Part shown: positions 16,190-23,125 of the stretch, in pieces | How positions within the stretch are numbered: the first letter of the stretch is position 1 | Layout: each line of letters opens with the position of its first letter | From: Bradyrhizobium sp. CB3481 | GTDB lineage: Bacteria > Pseudomonadota > Alphaproteobacteria > Rhizobiales > Xanthobacteraceae | Direction of reading: 5' to 3' | Assembly: GCF_029714305.1 (NCBI RefSeq) | Contig: NZ_CP121647.1 | Coordinates: 4,050,501-4,114,500, forward strand | Length of the DNA: 64,000 nucleotides | Notes under the pieces: generated by a model | The model's database searches: none | What the model was told of the DNA's origin: nothing | What the model saw: only the letters and a program-made list of their open reading frames with translations | Translations under genes and position numbers: made by a program

Positions 16190-17266
16190 ATGCGCACCGA
16201 TCTCTTCGACTTCGAACTCCCCGCGACAAGCATCGCGCTGCGGCCCGCCAGTCCGCGCGATGCCGCGCGTATGCTGGTGGTGAAGGGCGACGGCGTGCTG
16301 CACGACCGCACGGTCGCCGAACTGCCGCGCTGGCTGGAGCCGGGCGATCAGCTCGTTGTCAACGACACCAAGGTGATCTCCGCCCAGCTCAAGGGCCGTC
16401 GCATCGGCCGCGAGACCGAGCCGAAGATCGAGGCGACCCTGATCAAGCGGCTGGACGGCTCGCGCTGGCGTGCGCTGGTGAAGCCCGCCAAGAAGCTAGC
16501 GCCCGGCGACACCGTGCGCTTCGGCAATGAGGGCAAGGTGTGCCTGCTCGGCCATCTCGATGCCGAGGTCGAGGCCAAGGGCGAGGAGGGCGAGATCACG
16601 CTGTCGTTCTCGTTCCACGGCCCGGCGCTGGACCAGGCCATCGCCGATCTCGGCACGCCGCCATTGCCGCCCTATATCGCCAGCAAGCGCACGCCCGACG
16701 ATCGCGACGCCGCCGACTACCAGACCATGTTTGCAGCCAATGAGGGCGCGGTCGCCGCGCCGACCGCAGGACTGCATTTCACGCCGGCGCTGGAAGCGGC
16801 GCTGTGCGAGCGGGGCGTCGCTCTGCACCGGCTGACGCTGCATGTCGGGGCCGGGACCTTCCTGCCGGTCAAGGTCGAGGAGACCTCCGAGCACAGGATG
16901 CATGCCGAGTGGGGTTCGATCTCATCGGATACAGCGGCGGCGCTGAACGATGCGCGCGCGCAAGGTGGACGCATCGTCGCGGTCGGCACCACCTCGCTGC
17001 GGCTGCTCGAAAGTGCCGCGCGCGAAGACGGTATCATCCAGCCGTTCGAGGGCGAGACCTCGATCTTCATCACGCCGGGCTACCGGTTTCGCGCGGTCGA
17101 TATTCTCCTGACCAATTTCCATCTGCCGCGCTCGACGCTGTTCATGCTGGTGTCGGCCTTCTCGGGCCTCGAAACGATGAAGCGGGCCTATGCCCACGCC
17201 ATCGCCGCCGGTTACCGCTTCTATTCCTATGGCGATGCCTGCCTGCTGTTTCGCGCGCGAAGCTGA
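16190..17266 (+). CDS. queA: S-adenosylmethionine:tRNA ribosyltransferase-isomerase
   Basis: QueA transfers and isomerises ribose from S-adenosylmethionine onto preQ1-tRNA to make epoxyqueuosine, the step after Tgt. The 358-residue chain begins [11 protein letters not shown], the conserved QueA start; earlier in-frame codons lie in an intergenic repeat. Other family blocks are [38 protein letters not shown] and [16 protein letters not shown]. Its usual partner tgt lies 7 kb away. A GC-rich hairpin (agcccgcc/ggcgggct, 17297-17317) follows the stop. Confidence 0.96.
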
Positions 17267-17447
17267 CACGGTCTTTCGGCCGCGGGTCAGGAAAAGAAGC
17301 CCGCCGAGGGCGGGCTAAAGGTTCAGGGAGGAAGCGCTCTGACAATCAAGCGCCACGGTTGTATGTCTTCGATTCGGCCGCTTCCGAAAAGATCGTAGTA
17401 CTACCGTCTCTCGGCGCATCGTGCCGCGTGACCAACAGGGGAACTGC

Positions 17448-18749
17448 ATGAGTTTTTCCAGTATTTTTGCGCGCTTGGTCGCGCTGGTCGGCGCTGGCGC
17501 ACTGTTTTGGCGTCGGATGCAGGGCGCGCAGCCGAAGGCGGCCTGGGGCAGCACCCCCGCAATTCCTACCGCCAGGCCGCAAGGCGCCATCCCGACGCTC
17601 AAGATGCCGACCGCGCAGGGCTGGAGCGAGGGACAGAAGCCGGCCGCGGCGCCCGGGCTCAAGGTCAACGCCTTTGCCAGGGATCTGGACCATCCGCGCT
17701 GGATCAACGTCATGCCCAATGGCGACGTCCTGATCGCCGAGGCGACGCAGATCGCCGGAAAGCCCAGAAGCGTATTTCACTATGCGATGCAGGCGACGAT
17801 GCGGCGTGCCGCGGCGCTCGGCGTCAGTGCCGACCGCATCACGCTATTGCGCGACCGCGATGGCGATGGCGTCGCCGAGGGGCGCGGGATCTTCATGGAC
17901 GGGCTGAGCCAGCCGTTCGGCATGGCGCTGGTCGGTGACACCTTCTACGTCGGCAACACCGATGGCGTGGTCGCCTTTCCCTATGTCGCAGGTAGCGACC
18001 GCATTACGGCCGAAGGACGCAAGCTCGTCACCTTCAAGCCCGGCGGGCACTGGACGCGCAGCCTGTTGCCGAGCCCCGATGGCACGAAGCTCTACGCCGG
18101 CGTCGGCTCGCTCAGCAACATCGCGGAGATGGGGATGGAGGTCGAGGAGGGCCGCGCCGCCGTCTATGAGCTCGATCTGGCAGGCGGCACCAGCCGCATC
18201 TTCGCCAGCGGCCTGCGCAACCCCGTGGGGCTCGCCTTTGAGCCCAACACTGGCGTGCTCTGGACCGTCGTCAACGAGCGCGACGGCCTCGGCGACGAGA
18301 CGCCGCCGGACTATCTGACCTCGGTGCGCGACGGCGGCTTCTACGGCTGGCCCTATTGCTATTGGGGCCAGACGGTCGACGACCGCGTGCCGCAGGACCC
18401 GGCGATGGTCGCGAAAGCCATCCAGCCGGATTACGCGCTCGGCGGCCACACCGCCTCGCTCGGCCTGTGCTGGATGCCGGCGGGCACGCTGCCGGGCTTT
18501 CCCGACGGCATGGTGATCGGCCAGCACGGCTCCTGGAATCGCAGCACGCTCAGCGGCTATGCCGTCGTCTTCGTTCCCTTCGAGAACGGCCGCCCCTCCG
18601 GCCCGGCGGGGGATATTTTGACGGGCTTTCTCGCGCCCGATGAGAAGGTCTCGTACGGGCGGCCAGTCGGCGTCACGCTCGGTCCCGATGGCTCGCTGCT
18701 GGTCGCCGACGACGTCGGCAATTGCATCTGGCGGGTGACGGGAGCGTAG
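17448..18749 (+). CDS. L-sorbosone dehydrogenase-like / PQQ-type beta-propeller protein
   Basis: A 433-residue protein of the glucose/sorbosone dehydrogenase beta-propeller family. An N-terminal hydrophobic segment (residues 4-22, IFARLVALVGAGALFW) anchors or exports it. Propeller blocks include ARDLDHPRWINVMPNGDVLIAE, LLRDRDGDGVAEGRGIF, GLRNPVGLAFEP, WTVVNERDGLGDETPPDYL and GSWNRSTLSGYAVVFVPF, all recognisable from the family. It would act in the periplasm, possibly with PQQ. The start at 17448 has an AGGGGAAC ribosome site; an earlier ATG at 17421 lacks one. The substrate is not determinable. Confidence 0.85.
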   Translation: MSFSSIFARLVALVGAGALFWRRMQGAQPKAAWGSTPAIPTARPQGAIPTLKMPTAQGWSEGQKPAAAPGLKVNAFARDLDHPRWINVMPNGDVLIAEATQIAGKPRSVFHYAMQATMRRAAALGVSADRITLLRDRDGDGVAEGRGIFMDGLSQPFGMALVGDTFYVGNTDGVVAFPYVAGSDRITAEGRKLVTFKPGGHWTRSLLPSPDGTKLYAGVGSLSNIAEMGMEVEEGRAAVYELDLAGGTSRIFASGLRNPVGLAFEPNTGVLWTVVNERDGLGDETPPDYLTSVRDGGFYGWPYCYWGQTVDDRVPQDPAMVAKAIQPDYALGGHTASLGLCWMPAGTLPGFPDGMVIGQHGSWNRSTLSGYAVVFVPFENGRPSGPAGDILTGFLAPDEKVSYGRPVGVTLGPDGSLLVADDVGNCIWRVTGA

Positions 18750-18753
18750 GTAC

Positions 18754-18854
18754 GTAGGGTGCGGTAGGTGGGCAAAGGCGCACTTGCGCCGTGCCCACCA
18801 TCGTGCCGCATCGTCAGTCTGAATGGTGGGCACGCTTCGCTTTGCCCACCCTAC
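18754..18854. repeat. dispersed palindrome (GTAGGGTGGGCAAAG family)
   Basis: Arms gtaggtgggcaaaggcgcac and atggtgggcacgcttcgctt-tgcccaccctac are inverted, separated by an 18-base spacer. A close copy lies at 60495-60587 and a more distant one at 607-690. It separates the convergent stops of the sorbosone dehydrogenase-like gene and asd. Confidence 0.8.
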
Positions 18855-18861
18855 AAGATCA

Positions 18862-19887
18862 TCACGCCATCGCGCGCTGCGGGAGCAACTCCGCGATCTG
18901 GATCGCATTCAGCGCCGCGCCCTTCAGTAGCTGATCGGCCGAGACGAACATCGAGATCGAGTGGCCGGAAGCGTCGCTGAGATCCTTGCGGATGCGGCCG
19001 ACGAGAACATCATCCTGGCCTGAGGCATCGATCGGCATCGGGAAGTAGTTCTTCGCGCGGTCGTCGACGATTTTCACGCCCGGCGCCTTCGACAGGATCG
19101 CGCGCACCTCGTCCTCGGTGATCGGCTTCTCGCATTCGAAGGTGATCGCCTCGCAATGGGCGCGCAGCACGGGCACGCGCACGCAGGTGACGCCGATGGC
19201 GATCTTCTCATCCTCGAAGATCTTGCGGGTCTCCTTGATTACCTTGGTCTCTTCGTCGTTGTAGCCGGTCTCCGGGTCGATCGCCGTGTTGTGGCTGAAG
19301 ACGTTGAAGGCGTAGGGCAGCGGGATCACCTTGGGCGTGAACGGCCGGCCATCGAGGTAGGCACGGGTCGATTCCACGAGCTCTTCCATGGCCGCGGCGC
19401 CGGCGCCGCTCGCTGCCTGGTAGGTCGAGACAATCATGCGCTTGATGCGGTTCTGCCGGTGGATCGGCCACAGCGGCACCAGTGCCGTGATCGCCGAACA
19501 GTTCGGATTGGCGATGATACCCTTATGATCCCTGATGCGGCCCGCATTGATCTCCGGGATTACCAGCGGCACGTTCGGATCCATGCGGAAGGCGGAGGAA
19601 TTGTCGACGACTACCGCGCCGGCCTTCACGGCAGCCGGTGCGAACTTGCGCGAGATGCTGCCGCCGGCCGAGAACAGCGCGATGTCGACGCCCTCGAACG
19701 ACTTCTCAGTGAGCTCCTCGATGACGATGCTCTGCCCGCGGAATTCGACGGCCTTGCCGGCCGAGCGGGCGCTGGCCAGCGCCTTGAGCTTGCGGACGGG
19801 AAAATTGCGCCGGTTCATCGTGGCGATGAATTCGGCGCCGACGGCGCCGGTCACGCCGGCAATGGCAACAACGGGTTCGTAGCTCAC
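18862..19887 (-). CDS. asd: aspartate-semialdehyde dehydrogenase
   Basis: Asd reduces aspartyl phosphate to aspartate semialdehyde, the branch point to lysine, diaminopimelate, threonine, isoleucine and methionine. The 341-residue chain shows the NADP-binding VVAIAGVTGAVGAEF, SSAFRM, the catalytic cysteine in NPNCSAITALVPLWP and STYQAASGAG. The GTG at 19887 is preferred because AGAGGA lies upstream and the family N-terminus starts there; the longer frame (ATG 19923) runs back into the terminator. The region just upstream carries a candidate attenuator: a leader peptide rich in Thr, Ile and Lys codons and a rho-independent terminator. Confidence 0.95.
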   Translation of the reverse strand: MSYEPVVAIAGVTGAVGAEFIATMNRRNFPVRKLKALASARSAGKAVEFRGQSIVIEELTEKSFEGVDIALFSAGGSISRKFAPAAVKAGAVVVDNSSAFRMDPNVPLVIPEINAGRIRDHKGIIANPNCSAITALVPLWPIHRQNRIKRMIVSTYQAASGAGAAAMEELVESTRAYLDGRPFTPKVIPLPYAFNVFSHNTAIDPETGYNDEETKVIKETRKIFEDEKIAIGVTCVRVPVLRAHCEAITFECEKPITEDEVRAILSKAPGVKIVDDRAKNYFPMPIDASGQDDVLVGRIRKDLSDASGHSISMFVSADQLLKGAALNAIQIAELLPQRAMA

Positions 19888-19921
19888 GGGTCTGTCCTCT
19901 CTGGGCATCAATGGTCTGGGC

Positions 19922-19956
19922 AATAAAAAAGCCCCGGTCCTTTTCAGGCGGGGCTT
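19922..19956 (-). terminator. rho-independent terminator / attenuator upstream of asd
   Basis: On the minus strand AAGCCCCG is paired with CGGGGCTT around a 12-base loop, followed by TTTTATTG. It ends 35 bases before the asd start, so it would stop transcription before asd. A segment inside the upstream leader ORF (GGGGGCTCGG) can instead pair with CCGAAGCCCC, the 5' arm, giving a rival antiterminator. The alternative is that it simply terminates the PepSY gene transcript. Confidence 0.75.
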
Positions 19957-19981
19957 CGGTTCGGATGTTGCGGTCGTTCGA

Positions 19982-20053
19982 CTACGCGCGCGCGGCTCCC
20001 GAGCCCCCGGAGGGTGCTTTGGTTTTCGCGGTGGTTTTGGTCGAGATCGTCAT
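19982..20053 (-). CDS. putative leader peptide of asd (Thr/Ile/Lys attenuator)
   Basis: A 23-residue ORF on the minus strand beginning MTISTKTTAKTKAP and ending TAG at 19982-19984. Of the 11 residues after Met, five are Thr, one is Ile and three are Lys, the amino acids derived from the aspartate pathway. It ends 26 bases before the terminator stem, and its 3' part contains GGGGGCTCGG, which can pair with the terminator's 5' arm. The ribosome site (aagtccacgcc) is weak. The call rests on the codon bias and position, as in the classic thr and ilv leaders, not on homology. Confidence 0.6.
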   Translation of the reverse strand: MTISTKTTAKTKAPSGGSGAARA

Positions 20054-20135
20054 GGCGTGGACTTATGCGGCAGCCTGGCGCCGCCGTCAATGGGTTTCAG
20101 CCGGCATCTGGCTGCAACGGGGCCTGAGGTGCCTG

Positions 20136-20738
20136 TCATCGCCGTCTTGCGACGGCAGGAGGCGCGAGGATCACCTCTTTCATGTCGCCGCCGCTGATGA
20201 CGACGATCGCGAAATTCAGCCGGTTGCGCTGGCGGATCAGGCCGCCGCTGATCGCCTTGCCGGATGCCGCGTATTCGGCGACGCGAACGGCATCCGCCAG
20301 CTGGTACCGGATCGTCTTGAGCGCGGCGAGATTGCTGCGGTCCTCGGCATCGAGCTCCTTCAGCGGCAGCGCGGCTTCGCCGCCGACGACCTCGCCGGTC
20401 GTGGCGTTGACGGCGTGGTGCCAGATGCGGTCATTGTGCAGGATCTTTACCCGGTAGACCGGCGCATCAGGCGCGCCGTCGAAGCTGACATCGGCAGTTG
20501 TCGCGCCGGCATGCAGGGCTTCGGCAATCGCCATCGCCTGGCTGAGCGAGACCGCCGTGCCCCGAAAGAGTTCGAGTTCGCGGCTGATCGCCTTCTGGTC
20601 GGACGCGGCGCCATCCTCGGCCTCGTTGTGGACCGCGGCCGGCTCATCGGTTGGCGAGGCGAGGGCATACACGGGGGCAGGGAGGATCATCGCCACCAGG
20701 GCGATCGCGAGCAATGGTCTCCAGCCGGACTTACGCAT
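20136..20738 (-). CDS. exported PepSY-domain protein
   Basis: A 200-residue exported protein with signal peptide (MRKSGWRPLLAIALVAMILPAP, cleaved near YALA) and two PepSY-like units. The first runs from about residue 60 (SQAMAIAEALHAGATTADVSF ... YRVKILHNDRIWHHAVNATTGEVV), the second from about 130 (YQLADAVRVAEYAASGKAISGG). PepSY domains bind or inhibit proteases or ligands in the envelope. ATG 20738 has GGAGG 9 bases upstream. A 21-bp palindromic operator lies about 215 bases upstream, matching one before the patatin gene, so it is probably controlled by the TetR protein encoded nearby. Confidence 0.85.
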   Translation of the reverse strand: MRKSGWRPLLAIALVAMILPAPVYALASPTDEPAAVHNEAEDGAASDQKAISRELELFRGTAVSLSQAMAIAEALHAGATTADVSFDGAPDAPVYRVKILHNDRIWHHAVNATTGEVVGGEAALPLKELDAEDRSNLAALKTIRYQLADAVRVAEYAASGKAISGGLIRQRNRLNFAIVVISGGDMKEVILAPPAVARRR

Positions 20739-20951
20739 CTTGCAGCCTCCATCCATGAGCCTGTCTATCCCGAGACTGCTCTGCCGGCGGAACCGCCGGA
20801 CCACCCTCGTACAACGCGCGGCCGACCCTTTGGGGGACATCGGGTCGGCCGCGGAGCGTCGCAAACGGAGCTGAATCGCCGTTTGCGGCGATGAAGCGGC
20901 GCAGGCTCCCGCCGGGGACCCGTTAGCAGGAACCTGCACTTCGCTTGTAAC

Positions 20952-20972
20952 AAAACCATACCGTATCGTTTT
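20952..20972. promoter_or_regulatory. TetR-type operator, site 1
   Basis: A 21-bp near-perfect palindrome: half-sites AAAACcATAC and GTATcGTTTT around one central base, with one mismatched pair. Its twin is at 23201-23221. It precedes the PepSY gene on the minus strand, downstream of the TetR gene stop. Confidence 0.7.
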
Positions 20973-21021
20973 ATTTTGGGCAATGAGGCTGGCGGGCCGT
21001 GAACGTGTTCTCACGGAATTG

Positions 21022-21801
21022 TCAGCGGGAAGCGCGCCGCCGGACGGTTCCCTTGGGGGTGGTGGGCTGAACGCGGCTCGGCGGCCCGAGCGCGCCGGCC
21101 AGGAACAGCCTGATCGCCGAGCGCATGCGCTTTTCGGCGGACTTCATCTCGAGCGGCGTTCCGAACGTCGCCATGCGGTGGGTGTGACCGACCACCACGT
21201 CGAGAAACACCTCGGCCGCAATGCCGGTATCCTCGACGTCCATCGCGCCTTGCGCGACCAGATGATCGAAGAAGCGCGCGGTCGTCGAAACCGCCTTCAG
21301 CCAGCCCTCTTCCTTGCCGAGCTTGGCGATATCGGGAAAGTTGATGGCCTGCGATGTCATCATCCGGCTGAACGCGACGGCGTCGGGCCCGCAGGTGAAC
21401 ATCAGCATCTCGCGCCCGACCTCGATCAGGCGCTGCTCGACCGAGATGTCCGAGGGACGCGTAAGCTGCACCTCCGCGGCTTCGGCAAGCGGCGCCAGCC
21501 AGCGGTCGATTTCGCGCCTCAGCACTTCCGCGAACAGGCCGCGCTTGTCGCCGTAGCGCGCATAGACGGTGGGCTTGCTGACGCGGGCTGCCTCGGCAAC
21601 CGCATCAAGCGAGGTTGCATCATAGCCCCGGTCTAGGAAAAGACGGGTGGCAACCTCGATCAGGCGCTGATCGCGCTCGATGGCGGCGCTTTTCGTCGGC
21701 CGCCCGCCGCGCGACTTCGGGATGTTCCGTTTCGCCGGCCTGGCCTTGGTCGCAGTCAATCCCATGCCCAATGATTCCTGCGCGGTCCTGATAACAGTCA
21801 T
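21022..21801 (-). CDS. TetR/AcrR family transcriptional regulator
   Basis: A 259-residue regulator. The N-terminal helix-turn-helix is clear: IEVATRLFLDRGYDATSLDAV, AARVSKPTVYARYGDKRGLF (residues about 45-90). A basic extension of about 40 residues (KARPAKRNIPKSRGGRPTK) precedes it, and the C-terminal part is an all-helical ligand domain. Start: ATG 21801 is the first in a plausible frame, but ATG 21765 (MGLTATKARP) is possible; neither has a strong ribosome site. It lies 145 bases downstream of the patatin-like gene on the same strand, so cotranscription is possible, and two identical-type palindromes flank this set. Confidence 0.9.
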   Translation of the reverse strand: MTVIRTAQESLGMGLTATKARPAKRNIPKSRGGRPTKSAAIERDQRLIEVATRLFLDRGYDATSLDAVAEAARVSKPTVYARYGDKRGLFAEVLRREIDRWLAPLAEAAEVQLTRPSDISVEQRLIEVGREMLMFTCGPDAVAFSRMMTSQAINFPDIAKLGKEEGWLKAVSTTARFFDHLVAQGAMDVEDTGIAAEVFLDVVVGHTHRMATFGTPLEMKSAEKRMRSAIRLFLAGALGPPSRVQPTTPKGTVRRRASR

Positions 21802-21946
21802 TGCTCTATAACGTGCAGCAAGAGGGGCGTCATGGCGAATCTGGCCCAAACCGCTCTCCGTTCCCCGCATGCTGCGCAACGCGCCGCCCCTTGGCGGCGT
21901 GGTGCGCTGCTGATCCGGGGCCACGGTCCTCGTTCCCCGGCCTGGC

Positions 21947-23125
21947 TCATGGCACCGTCGAGGTCCAGGCGTGGCCCGACGCTGCTTTCTCATACCCATA
22001 CTGATAGAGCACGCGCATATAGCCGGTGTCGAATCCCTCCTTGGGCGAGGCGGGATAGTCGCGCTCGATATAGGACAGATGAAAACCCCAGCGGTTGCGC
22101 TTGGCGAAATCATAGGTCGAGAAGATCACCGAGCGGGTCTGGGATTGGGTGATTGACGACAGGCTGCGTGAGGCGACATCGAGCGTGCTGTTGGACACCA
22201 GCTCAAAGGTCCGTTCGAGCTTCTTGTTGACGAGAATGTAGATGTTCATCCGGCTGTTGGCCGGCAGGCGGCCCTGCAGGATCAGCGCGTCCGGCAGTGT
22301 CAGAACCGGCGCGGTGACGCCGCCGTCGACATGCATCTCCTGAAAACGTCGGCCCTGGCCCTCGGCCTCGATCAGGATCGGCGGGAAGACCAGCGGGATA
22401 CTGGCCGAAGCCGCCATCACGTCGCGAAACAGATGCAGCGCCTCGGGCGAGCCGACCGCGGCGATTTTCCCCATGTCCCAAACCGCAGTGCGCTGGGTGT
22501 CGAGATCGGTCGTCACCACGAGCAGCTTGCGGCCCTTGGCGTCCTCGCGCGCCACGGCCGCCAGGATTTCCGGCCCGACGTAGCGGGCCACGAGCTCGCG
22601 CAATCGCTTGTTGCCAAATAGGCCGGATCCGAACAGCACGCGGATGATGCTGGGATCGTCGAGCAGGCTTTCCGCGATGCCGCTGGTGTAGACCTCCCGC
22701 AGCGTGTCGTCATATTGGGGCCCGAGAAACGCGAAGGGCGCAATCAGGCCGCCGGTGCTGACGCCCGAAACCACCGAGAAGGCCGGGCGGGTGCCGGCCG
22801 CGGTCCAGCCGTTCAATACGCCCACGCCGTAGGCGCCATCGGCGCCGCCGCCGGAGAGCGCGAGATAGGTCCTGGTCGAAGAGGGGGCCTCTTTCTCGAA
22901 ACGGAATTTGGTGACGGGCTCGTCGGTGTAGCGCCGCAGACCGTCGAGATCGAGCACGCGGGCGGTGCTCGCATCCGCGGCGCTGTAAGGCGTCCGTGGC
23001 AGCGACGTGCAGGCGGCCAGGGCCAGGTAGCACGCCAGAGCGGCCGAGCCGAGCAGGCGTGAGCCCTTTCTCCAGATCCGAAGGTCGGAACGGATTGATT
23101 CAGTCAGGAAATGGGGGGAGGGCAT
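21947..23125 (-). CDS. patatin-like phospholipase lipoprotein
   Basis: A 392-residue patatin-fold protein with a lipoprotein signal (LALAACTS lipobox at about residue 39). Catalytic elements are intact: the oxyanion motif SGGGADGAYG (about 93-102), nucleophile serine in GVSTG (about 122) and the Asp of VDGGV (about 262). These Ser-Asp dyad enzymes hydrolyse acyl lipids; the lipid anchor places it at the envelope. It starts 75 bases from a 21-bp palindromic operator shared with the PepSY gene. No strong ribosome site precedes ATG 23125, but no better start exists before the signal. Confidence 0.9.
   Translation of the reverse strand: MPSPHFLTESIRSDLRIWRKGSRLLGSAALACYLALAACTSLPRTPYSAADASTARVLDLDGLRRYTDEPVTKFRFEKEAPSSTRTYLALSGGGADGAYGVGVLNGWTAAGTRPAFSVVSGVSTGGLIAPFAFLGPQYDDTLREVYTSGIAESLLDDPSIIRVLFGSGLFGNKRLRELVARYVGPEILAAVAREDAKGRKLLVVTTDLDTQRTAVWDMGKIAAVGSPEALHLFRDVMAASASIPLVFPPILIEAEGQGRRFQEMHVDGGVTAPVLTLPDALILQGRLPANSRMNIYILVNKKLERTFELVSNSTLDVASRSLSSITQSQTRSVIFSTYDFAKRNRWGFHLSYIERDYPASPKEGFDTGYMRVLYQYGYEKAASGHAWTSTVP

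What the first reader, a model, noticed from the sequence alone, without database searches (positions are those of the whole stretch)
19922..20053. Putative transcription attenuator of asd with a Thr/Ile/Lys-rich leader peptide
Upstream of asd on the minus strand sits a 23-codon ORF whose first 12 residues are Met plus 9 of 11 Thr/Ile/Lys. A rho-independent terminator (CCCCG stem, T-run) follows, then asd 35 bases later. The leader's GGGGGCTCGG segment can pair with CCGAAGCCCC of the terminator's 5' arm (9 bp, one bulged A), while it also forms an internal hairpin (GGCTC-GG-GAGCC). That gives three alternative structures as in classic amino-acid attenuators: ribosome stalled in the Thr codons leaves the antiterminator free, whereas a ribosome at the TAG covers it. 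Asd serves Lys, Thr, Ile and Met synthesis. I know of no described attenuator of asd in Bradyrhizobium. Alternative: the terminator merely ends the PepSY gene transcript.
Basis: partly seen in the sequence, partly recalled or inferred. Interest (0 to 1): 0.78.

Follow-up and report, generated by a model that had tools for sequence, protein, structure and literature searches.

The report
Amino-acid-starvation RNA switch for asd
A short Thr- and Lys-rich leader peptide gene and a transcription terminator sit in front of a second copy of the biosynthetic gene asd in nearly all Bradyrhizobium examined, and together they look like a switch that turns the gene on when threonine or lysine runs short.

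Summary

The 23-codon leader, its promoter, pairing segments and terminator are conserved across Bradyrhizobium: of 100 distinct sequences 96 have exactly 23 codons; 80 of 80 named loci carry leader and terminator. Lys is AAA at the regulatory positions, against 19% in window genes.

With a simulated stalled ribosome the antiterminator forms in 93 of 93 sequences when the A site is at codons 4-12, and in 0 of 93 at codons 15-22. E. coli thrL shows the same transition.

Corrections: the controlled gene is a second asd (asd2), 46% identical to the housekeeping copy, which lacks the leader. The -10 ends 8 nt before the ATG, so the leader mRNA is probably leaderless. The competing structure involves codons 4-14, not a GGCTC-GG-GAGCC hairpin.

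Extensions: a dapA-like gene in these genomes has a conserved Lys-only leader (50 of 50 loci). Thr/Lys-rich leaders also precede the single-copy asd in 19 of 36 sampled Hyphomicrobiales families, mostly without an intrinsic terminator. One published hint exists (S. meliloti SEP5). New member of a known kind.

The parts
20062..20090 (-). Promoter: TTGACG (20090-20085), 17 nt, CATAAG (20067-20062); predicted transcript start about 20055-20053, so the leader mRNA is nearly or fully leaderless
   Evidence: 1 match in window, 0 in 100 shuffles; 79 of 80 named loci have TTGAC[GT]-17-CATAAG 7-8 nt before ATG; TTGAC in 100 of 100 distinct sequences, the hexamer 17 nt later being CATAAG 91, TATGGT 7, CATAAA 1, TATGTT 1. 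Transcript start is inferred.
19982..20053 (-). Leader peptide ORF, 23 codons plus TAG: MTISTKTTAKTKAPSGGSGAARA
   Evidence: 96 of 100 distinct sequences have exactly 23 codons; T5 93, K6 95, T8 91, K10 93, T11 95 of 96; pN/pS 0.53 for codons 5-12 against about 1.4 in the other two frames (68 distinct leaders)
20018..20050 (-). Regulatory Thr/Lys codons (codons 2-12); every Lys codon at positions 6, 10 and 12 is AAA in the 96 leaders
   Evidence: background AAA 19% of Lys codons in 19 window genes
20012..20017 (-). Region 1 core (codons 13-14), which pairs with region 2; in free RNA the anti-antiterminator extends upstream into codons 4-12
   Evidence: free RNA favours this hairpin over 2:3 in 62 of 93
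19999..20007 (-). Region 2, GGGGCUCGG (codons 16-19), antiterminator 5' strand
19950..19959 (-). Region 3, CCGAAGCCCC: antiterminator 3' strand and terminator 5' arm
19925..19957 (-). Intrinsic terminator: GAAGCCCCGCCU-GAAA-AGG-AC-CGGGGCUUU stem, T6 ending at 19925
   Evidence: -18.6 kcal/mol; GCCCCG..CGGGGC-T present in 80 of 80 named loci
18862..19887 (-). asd2: aspartate-semialdehyde dehydrogenase paralog, GTG start; the next gene downstream is a + strand ORF (17421-18749), so probably monocistronic
   Evidence: NCBIfam TIGR01296 411.8 bits (cut-off 324.2); 46% identical to the housekeeping-type asd of the same genome; ORFs

Best explanation
This is a ribosome-mediated transcription attenuator, of the E. 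coli thrL type, that controls a second aspartate-semialdehyde dehydrogenase (asd2). The transcript starts at or next to the leader AUG. When Thr-tRNA and Lys-tRNA are charged, the ribosome runs through codons 2-12, covers region 2 and then lets it pair with the preceding leader RNA. Region 3 is then free to form the terminator, and transcription stops before asd2. When Thr or Lys is short, the ribosome stalls in codons 4-12, disrupts the upstream hairpin, and region 2 captures region 3 before region 4 is made; RNA polymerase reads into asd2. Shown by sequence and comparison: promoter-like sequence, leader, regulatory codons, pairing segments, terminator, paralogy. Shown by computation only: competing structures and switch position. 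Inferred: leaderless initiation, stalling, kinetics and the physiological response.
For: Leader, promoter and terminator conserved across the genus: 109 of 111 examined upstream regions (by my count 101 genomes, one of them, G314, from a neighbouring genus); the two misses are one genome, G164, with a 1-nt frameshift. 80 of 80 named loci. Regulatory codons are the constrained ones. Lys is AAA in 95 of 95, 93 of 93 and 41 of 41 Lys codons at positions 6, 10 and 12, but AAG in 24 of 26 at position 13, where the codon belongs to the hairpin; background AAA is 19%. Reading-frame constraint in codons 5-12 and RNA-type constraint, pN/pS 1.74, in codons 13-23. Antiterminator at least 4 expected bp in 93 of 93 with the A site at codons 4-12 and 0 of 93 at codons 15-22. 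Native antiterminator 9.3 bp against 5.96 (sd 3.24) after synonymous recoding; at least 7 bp in 99% against 46%. Positive control E. coli thrL: full antiterminator (8 bp) up to codon 15, 1.8 bp at codon 16, the last Thr codon. The leader does not depend on the PepSY gene: 11 of 79 named loci have no PepSY match within 1.5 kb upstream yet keep it. A second leader in the same genomes, before a dapA-like gene, gives the antiterminator in 50 of 50 with the A site at its Lys codons and 0 of 50 from five codons on.
Against: No expression, start-site or read-through data; the leader is not shown to be translated in Bradyrhizobium. At equilibrium on the full-length RNA the terminator still wins for the window's own sequence with a stalled ribosome (2.9 against 6.0 expected bp at codon 10; over the set 51 of 93 keep at least 4 bp of 2:3), so antitermination must be kinetic. 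In free RNA, 36 of 93 sequences still form at least 4 bp of 2:3, and 23 of 93 do so with a ribosome at the stop codon, so basal termination may be incomplete; thrL also forms it in free RNA. Recoded controls pair fairly often because the region is GC-rich (15.6% reach their native value). The swap test for coevolution of regions 2 and 3 gave only a small difference (-17.37 against -16.71 kcal/mol). The 93 sequences are related, not independent. Genome G164 has lost the leader reading frame.
Confidence: 0.85

Rival explanations
1. The terminator merely ends the upstream PepSY gene's transcript and asd2 has its own promoter after it; the leader ORF is incidental.
For: A PepSY gene lies upstream on the same strand in 68 of 79 named loci. 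TTGCC just after the T-run is fairly conserved and could be part of a -35, though no conserved -10 follows it.
Against: A conserved TTGACG-17-CATAAG promoter-like sequence lies between PepSY and the terminator. 11 of 79 loci lack a PepSY match within 1.5 kb yet keep leader and terminator. Beyond TTGCC and the ribosome-binding region, the stretch between T-run and asd2 varies in length and sequence. The leader codons are under coding constraint.
Confidence: 0.05
2. The leader acts mainly in trans: the terminated RNA is a small RNA, or the peptide is a regulator, as described for rnTrpL/peTrpL in Sinorhizobium meliloti.
For: S. meliloti trpL attenuation yields a leaderless dual-function RNA (PMC7298713 passages). 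The predicted terminated RNA here would have the same form, starting at or near AUG and ending in a U-run.
Against: Codons 13-23 are conserved at nucleotide rather than amino-acid level (pN/pS 1.74). The constraint seen fits a cis switch. The two roles are not exclusive.
Confidence: 0.06
3. Constitutive partial terminator: the leader only sets a low basal level of asd2 and does not respond to amino acids.
For: Equilibrium folding of the full RNA favours the terminator in the window's own sequence at each of the seven ribosome positions tested.
Against: Does not explain the conservation of Thr/Lys identity, AAA codon choice, 23-codon length or the match between switch point and codon cluster; the same logic recurs at a dapA-like gene with Lys codons.
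Confidence: 0.04

Closest known systems
E. coli thrL attenuator of the thrABC operon (Rfam family Thr_leader, name recalled)
   Same: Thr-rich leader, region 2 inside the leader ORF, region 3 shared by antiterminator and terminator, same switch behaviour in the same simulation.
   Different: Senses Thr and Lys, not Thr and Ile; probably leaderless; controls an asd paralog; no Rfam match.
Sinorhizobium meliloti SEP5 (PMC10117765, passages read)
   Same: Small ORF with six Thr and three Lys codons in the 5'-UTR of a gene the paper calls 'aspartate dehydrogenase'; translation shown there by Ribo-seq and Western blot; proposed as a leader peptide.
   Different: Reported as conserved only in Sinorhizobium; no structure or mechanism in the passages seen. 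The Thr/Lys leaders found here ahead of single-copy asd in family f22, likely Rhizobiaceae, fit it, but have the Thr/Lys cluster at the 3' end and, in the three inspected, no T-run. Identity with SEP5 was not proven.
Alphaproteobacterial trpL attenuator (S. meliloti rnTrpL/peTrpL; a trpL leader peptide is also named for Bradyrhizobium japonicum)
   Same: S. meliloti trpL is a leaderless leader ORF of a transcription attenuator (PMC7298713 passages; PMC10117765 passages).
   Different: Senses Trp, controls trp genes.
Proteobacterial amino-acid attenuators of Vitreschak et al. 2004 (recalled; seen only as a citation)
   Same: Comparative catalogue of leader-peptide attenuators.
   Different: I recall Thr attenuators there only in gammaproteobacteria and none for asd; the paper was not read.

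Membership tests
Ribosome-mediated transcription attenuator (thrL/trpL type) | Promoter directly upstream of a short leader ORF | tested here: met
   By sequence only: TTGAC-17-hexamer (91 CATAAG) 8-10 nt before the ATG in 100 distinct sequences; 79 of 80 named loci; activity not measured
Ribosome-mediated transcription attenuator (thrL/trpL type) | Leader rich in codons of an end product of the controlled pathway | tested here: met
   Thr/Lys codons conserved; asd makes the common precursor of Lys, Thr, Met and Ile (established biochemistry); asd2 passes TIGR01296
Ribosome-mediated transcription attenuator (thrL/trpL type) | Intrinsic terminator between leader and gene | tested here: met
   80 of 80 named loci; -18.6 kcal/mol in the window
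Ribosome-mediated transcription attenuator (thrL/trpL type) | Antiterminator mutually exclusive with terminator, controlled by ribosome position at the regulatory codons | tested here: met
   Computation only, on transcripts ending at region 3: 93 of 93 with A site at codons 4-12, 0 of 93 at codons 15-22; on full-length RNA at equilibrium only 51 of 93 keep it at codon 10; positive control
Ribosome-mediated transcription attenuator (thrL/trpL type) | Leader is translated | not testable with these tools
   Only reading-frame constraint seen
Ribosome-mediated transcription attenuator (thrL/trpL type) | Read-through rises when the cognate amino acid is limiting | not testable with these tools
   No expression data available here
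Rfam amino-acid leader families (Thr_leader and others) | Covariance-model match | tested here: not met
   No leader family among matches at E up to 1 (window 17000-23000) or (four loci)
Known riboswitch or small-RNA family in the asd leader (Rfam) | Covariance-model match in the asd leader | tested here: not met
   only a sub-threshold suhB hit at 17283-17360, far from the leader

The most novel reading that the evidence does not exclude
Thr/Lys-rich leader peptides ahead of asd are an essentially undescribed, order-wide amino-acid sensor of Hyphomicrobiales that has been coupled to at least two expression platforms. In many families it sits before the single-copy asd, with C-terminal Thr/Lys runs and a CUCUCCC/GGGAGAG switch near the ribosome-binding site and no intrinsic terminator. 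In Bradyrhizobium the sensor is absent from the housekeeping asd and instead drives a dedicated paralog, asd2, through a leaderless thrL-like attenuator. A dapA-like paralog carries a Lys-only leader of the same build, so that a Thr/Lys starvation regulon of spare aspartate-pathway enzymes exists.
Probability: 0.5. Interest if true: 0.75.

Novelty: new member of a known kind. Interest (0 to 1): 0.6.

Why it matters
asd is the branch point to Lys (and diaminopimelate for the cell wall), Thr, Met and Ile, and my paper searches turned up no mechanism for its control in rhizobia beyond the SEP5 suggestion. A genus-wide attenuator on a spare asd, and a matching Lys attenuator on a dapA-like gene, would give Bradyrhizobium a concrete, testable amino-acid starvation regulon, relevant to soil survival and perhaps to the nodule, where amino-acid supply changes. 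It would also supply a Lys-sensing leader-peptide attenuator, a type I do not recall being described, and could explain the SEP5 observation in S. meliloti.

Tried and rejected
Column-wise covariation of the antiterminator was not pursued as a formal test (count of structure pairs was not used): regions 2 and 3 pair in shifted registers in different clades, so one structure string does not fit. I used register-free pairing probabilities and a synonymous-recoding control instead. The RNAalifold consensus recovers the terminator and only weak upstream pairs.

Swap test for region 2/region 3 coevolution: only a small effect. A few individual changes look compensating: TGG at codon 18 with CCGCAG (L010, L014), TTC at codon 18 with an inserted GC (L032, L041). 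They are anecdotal.

Ile as a sensed amino acid was not supported. Of the 12 other model matches in the own genome I inspected 7: one is the dapA-like leader, the other six look like ordinary terminators without a leader of interest. No Thr/Lys-rich small ORF was seen in the 330 nt ahead of the main dapA. For homoserine dehydrogenase the stretch examined showed none, but it probably stops short of the last 70 nt or so before the start codon, so this is not a clean negative. lysC, thrB and thrC were not examined.

Two genomes (G657, G518) were entered twice in the order-wide count (37 of 63 rows); removes them (36 of 61). The dapA-like leaders were picked by their SKK motif; all 50 loci matched, so none was dropped.

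Absence in print rests on these searches: (open-access PMC only), plus term look-ups in PMC2965389, PMC1273637 and PMC4842269. Supplementary tables, including the Bradyrhizobium start-site lists of PMC4842269, could not be read.

Full report
WHAT IS THERE. On the minus strand the 23-codon ORF MTISTKTTAKTKAPSGGSGAARA* (20053-19982) is followed by an intrinsic terminator (stem about 19957-19928, T6 at 19930-19925) and by an asd gene with a GTG start at 19887. A promoter-like TTGACG-17 nt-CATAAG ends 8 nt before the leader ATG. The pattern occurs once in the 64-kb window and in none of 100 shuffles. The built-in scanner found neither promoter nor terminator; its consensus rules are narrower than these sites.

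CONSERVATION. A 441-nt probe matched 231 of 242 genomes of the genus, own included. I took the 30 loci given there, 60 more chosen down the listing, and loci. Of 111 asd2 upstream regions examined (by my count 101 genomes, ten loci being repeats; one genome, G314, is of a neighbouring genus), 109 have the leader; the two without are one genome (G164, loci L067 and L080) with a 1-nt deletion that shifts the leader frame. The 109 give 100 distinct sequences, of which 96 have exactly 23 codons, 2 have 22 and 2 have 24. A scan of named genomes returned the best 80 of at least 547 loci, 76 of them titled Bradyrhizobium; 80 of 80 carry leader and terminator (79 of 23 codons, one of 22) and 79 of 80 the same promoter. 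These overlap the unnamed set in part. Of the 11 genomes with no DNA match, 8 encode only the housekeeping-type asd, one has an asd2 fragment at a contig edge, one only other fragments and one nothing. Two genomes with weak DNA matches (G091, G219) also showed no asd2 protein there.

CODONS. Among the 96 leaders of 23 codons, T5 (93), K6 (95), T8 (91), K10 (93) and T11 (95) are nearly fixed and codon 12 is T or K in 90. At positions 6, 10 and 12 every Lys codon is AAA, against 19% AAA in 19 window genes. At position 13, part of the competing hairpin, Lys is AAG in 24 of 26. On 68 distinct leaders pN/pS is 0.68 for codons 2-12 and 0.53 for codons 5-12, against about 1.4 in the two other frames. 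For codons 13-23 it is 1.74, which points to conservation of the RNA rather than the peptide there.

SWITCH. I masked a ribosome footprint (15 nt on either side of the first P-site nucleotide) and computed pairing of region 2 (codons 15-20) with region 3 in the transcript up to region 3, for 93 distinct sequences. At least 4 expected base pairs formed in 77 and 81 of 93 for A-site codons 2 and 3, in 93 of 93 for codons 4 to 12, in 77 at codon 13, 50 at codon 14, 0 at codons 15-22, 15 at codon 23, 23 at the stop codon and 36 in free RNA. In free RNA the hairpin between codons 4-14 and the following segment outweighs 2:3 in 62 of 93. So the switch point coincides with the end of the Thr/Lys cluster. 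E. coli thrL in the same procedure gives a full antiterminator (8 bp) up to codon 15 and 1.8 bp at codon 16, its last Thr codon; it partly returns at codons 18-19 (3.1 bp) and is full in free RNA (7.8 bp). Controls: synonymous recoding of codons 13-23, 12 times per sequence, lowers the antiterminator from 9.3 to 5.96 expected bp (at least 7 bp in 99% against 46%; 15.6% of recoded sequences reach the native value). The swap test was weak. On full-length RNA at equilibrium the terminator wins for the window sequence even with a stalled ribosome, and 51 of 93 keep at least 4 bp of 2:3 at codon 10, so antitermination has to be kinetic.

THE GENE. asd2 passes the TIGR01296 cut-off (411.8 against 324.2 bits), but the genome holds a second asd at G000:C1:360108-361100, 46% identical. 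All 17 Bradyrhizobium genomes in the family draw have two matches; most genomes of other genera have one, at about 45-47% in the rows listed. The housekeeping asd of seven Bradyrhizobium genomes examined has no Thr/Lys-rich upstream ORF by the criterion used; a looser criterion gave three short weak hits at other housekeeping-type loci. G314, of another genus, has asd2 with a divergent leader and the same terminator. The switch therefore controls a genus-typical paralog, not the only asd.

THE PepSY RIVAL. 68 of 79 named loci with 1.5 kb upstream have the PepSY gene; the 11 without still have leader and terminator. Between the T-run and asd2 only TTGCC next to the T-run and the ribosome-binding region are conserved, so no complete alternative promoter is evident.

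SECOND LEADER IN THE SAME GENOME. A covariance model of the leader run on the own genome found, among weak hits, a leader MITRSCAASSSKKGPHPGTRDRRAR* ahead of a DHDPS-family gene at G000:C1:7172862 (E 0.66; TIGR00674 204.7 bits, just under its 206.15 cut-off). The region matches in 114 of 117 genomes. All 50 loci fetched (30 best, 20 picked down the list) have the SKK leader, Lys codons AAAAAA in 49 of 50, and the terminator in 50 of 50. TTGACA-17-CATCAT lies 6 nt before ATG in 41 of 50. In simulation the antiterminator (at least 4 bp) forms in 44-47 of 50 with the A site 2-4 codons before the first Lys, in 50 of 50 from one codon before it to the second Lys, then in 35, 21 and 8 of 50 at the next three codons, in 0 of 50 from five codons after it, and in 2 of 50 in free RNA. 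This looks like a Lys attenuator.

OTHER FAMILIES. I searched 199 genomes of the order with the housekeeping asd (195 matched) and looked upstream in 61 distinct loci outside Bradyrhizobium: the 23 best-scoring plus others picked by family label before seeing their upstream sequence (7 of them in family f22, where I looked for Sinorhizobium). 36 of 61 loci, in 19 of 36 families, have an upstream ORF with at least 5 Thr/Lys in 9 residues near its end; the reverse strand gives 2 of 61 and shuffles a mean of 0.8, maximum 3 (one search gave 37 of 63 with two genomes entered twice). In 27 of those that I inspected, only 2 have a T-run before asd; many have CUCUCCC and a matching GGGAGAG shortly upstream of the start codon. 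The sensor thus seems shared and the output stage different; that output stage is inferred from sequence alone.

WHAT IS KNOWN. The nearest statement in print that I found is in PMC10117765 (passages read): SEP5, a translated small ORF with six Thr and three Lys codons in the 5'-UTR of an 'aspartate dehydrogenase' gene, conserved only in Sinorhizobium and possibly a leader peptide. PMC7298713 (passages) describes the leaderless trpL of S. meliloti and names a trpL leader peptide for Bradyrhizobium japonicum. PMC4842269 (passages) maps Bradyrhizobium start sites, reports 320 starts 0-10 nt before start codons as leaderless, and has no hit for 'asd' or 'aspartate' in its main text. PMC1183508 (passages) notes eight ACC codons in the E. 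coli thr leader and explains codon choice by selective tRNA charging. Rfam has no matching family.

VERDICT. A real, genus-wide, thrL-like attenuator of a second asd, responding by design to Thr and Lys. Mechanism inferred at 0.85; a new member of a known kind, with a wider, essentially undescribed family around it.

Noticed in passing
G000:C1:7172862-7172991 (locus L226 about 1501-1630), outside the window: Conserved Lys-only leader (SSKKGPHPG) with terminator and competing hairpin ahead of a dapA-like gene; DNA match in 114 of 117 Bradyrhizobium genomes; antiterminator simulated in 50 of 50 loci with the ribosome at the Lys codons.
   Followed up: partly
L236-L278 and L340-L359, upstream of single-copy asd in other Hyphomicrobiales families: Thr/Lys-rich leader ORFs in 36 of 61 distinct loci and 19 of 36 families; 25 of the 27 inspected have no T-run before asd.
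   Followed up: partly
L260, L254, L278 and others, leader stop to asd start: Recurrent CUCUCCC segment that can pair with a nearby GGGGAGA or with GGGAGAG close to the asd ribosome-binding site: a possible translational switch.
   Followed up: no
L067 / L080 (genome G164): A 1-nt deletion in region 2 shifts the leader frame although the Thr/Lys codons are intact; a natural test case for the switch.
   Followed up: no
window 17283-17360, minus strand: Sub-threshold suhB/mmgR small-RNA match (26.8 bits, gathering score 41).
   Followed up: no
L210 (record JAUEPE010000002.1): A record titled Frankia sp. RB7 carries asd2 (85% identical) with the Bradyrhizobium-type leader, so the organism label is probably wrong.
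   Followed up: no
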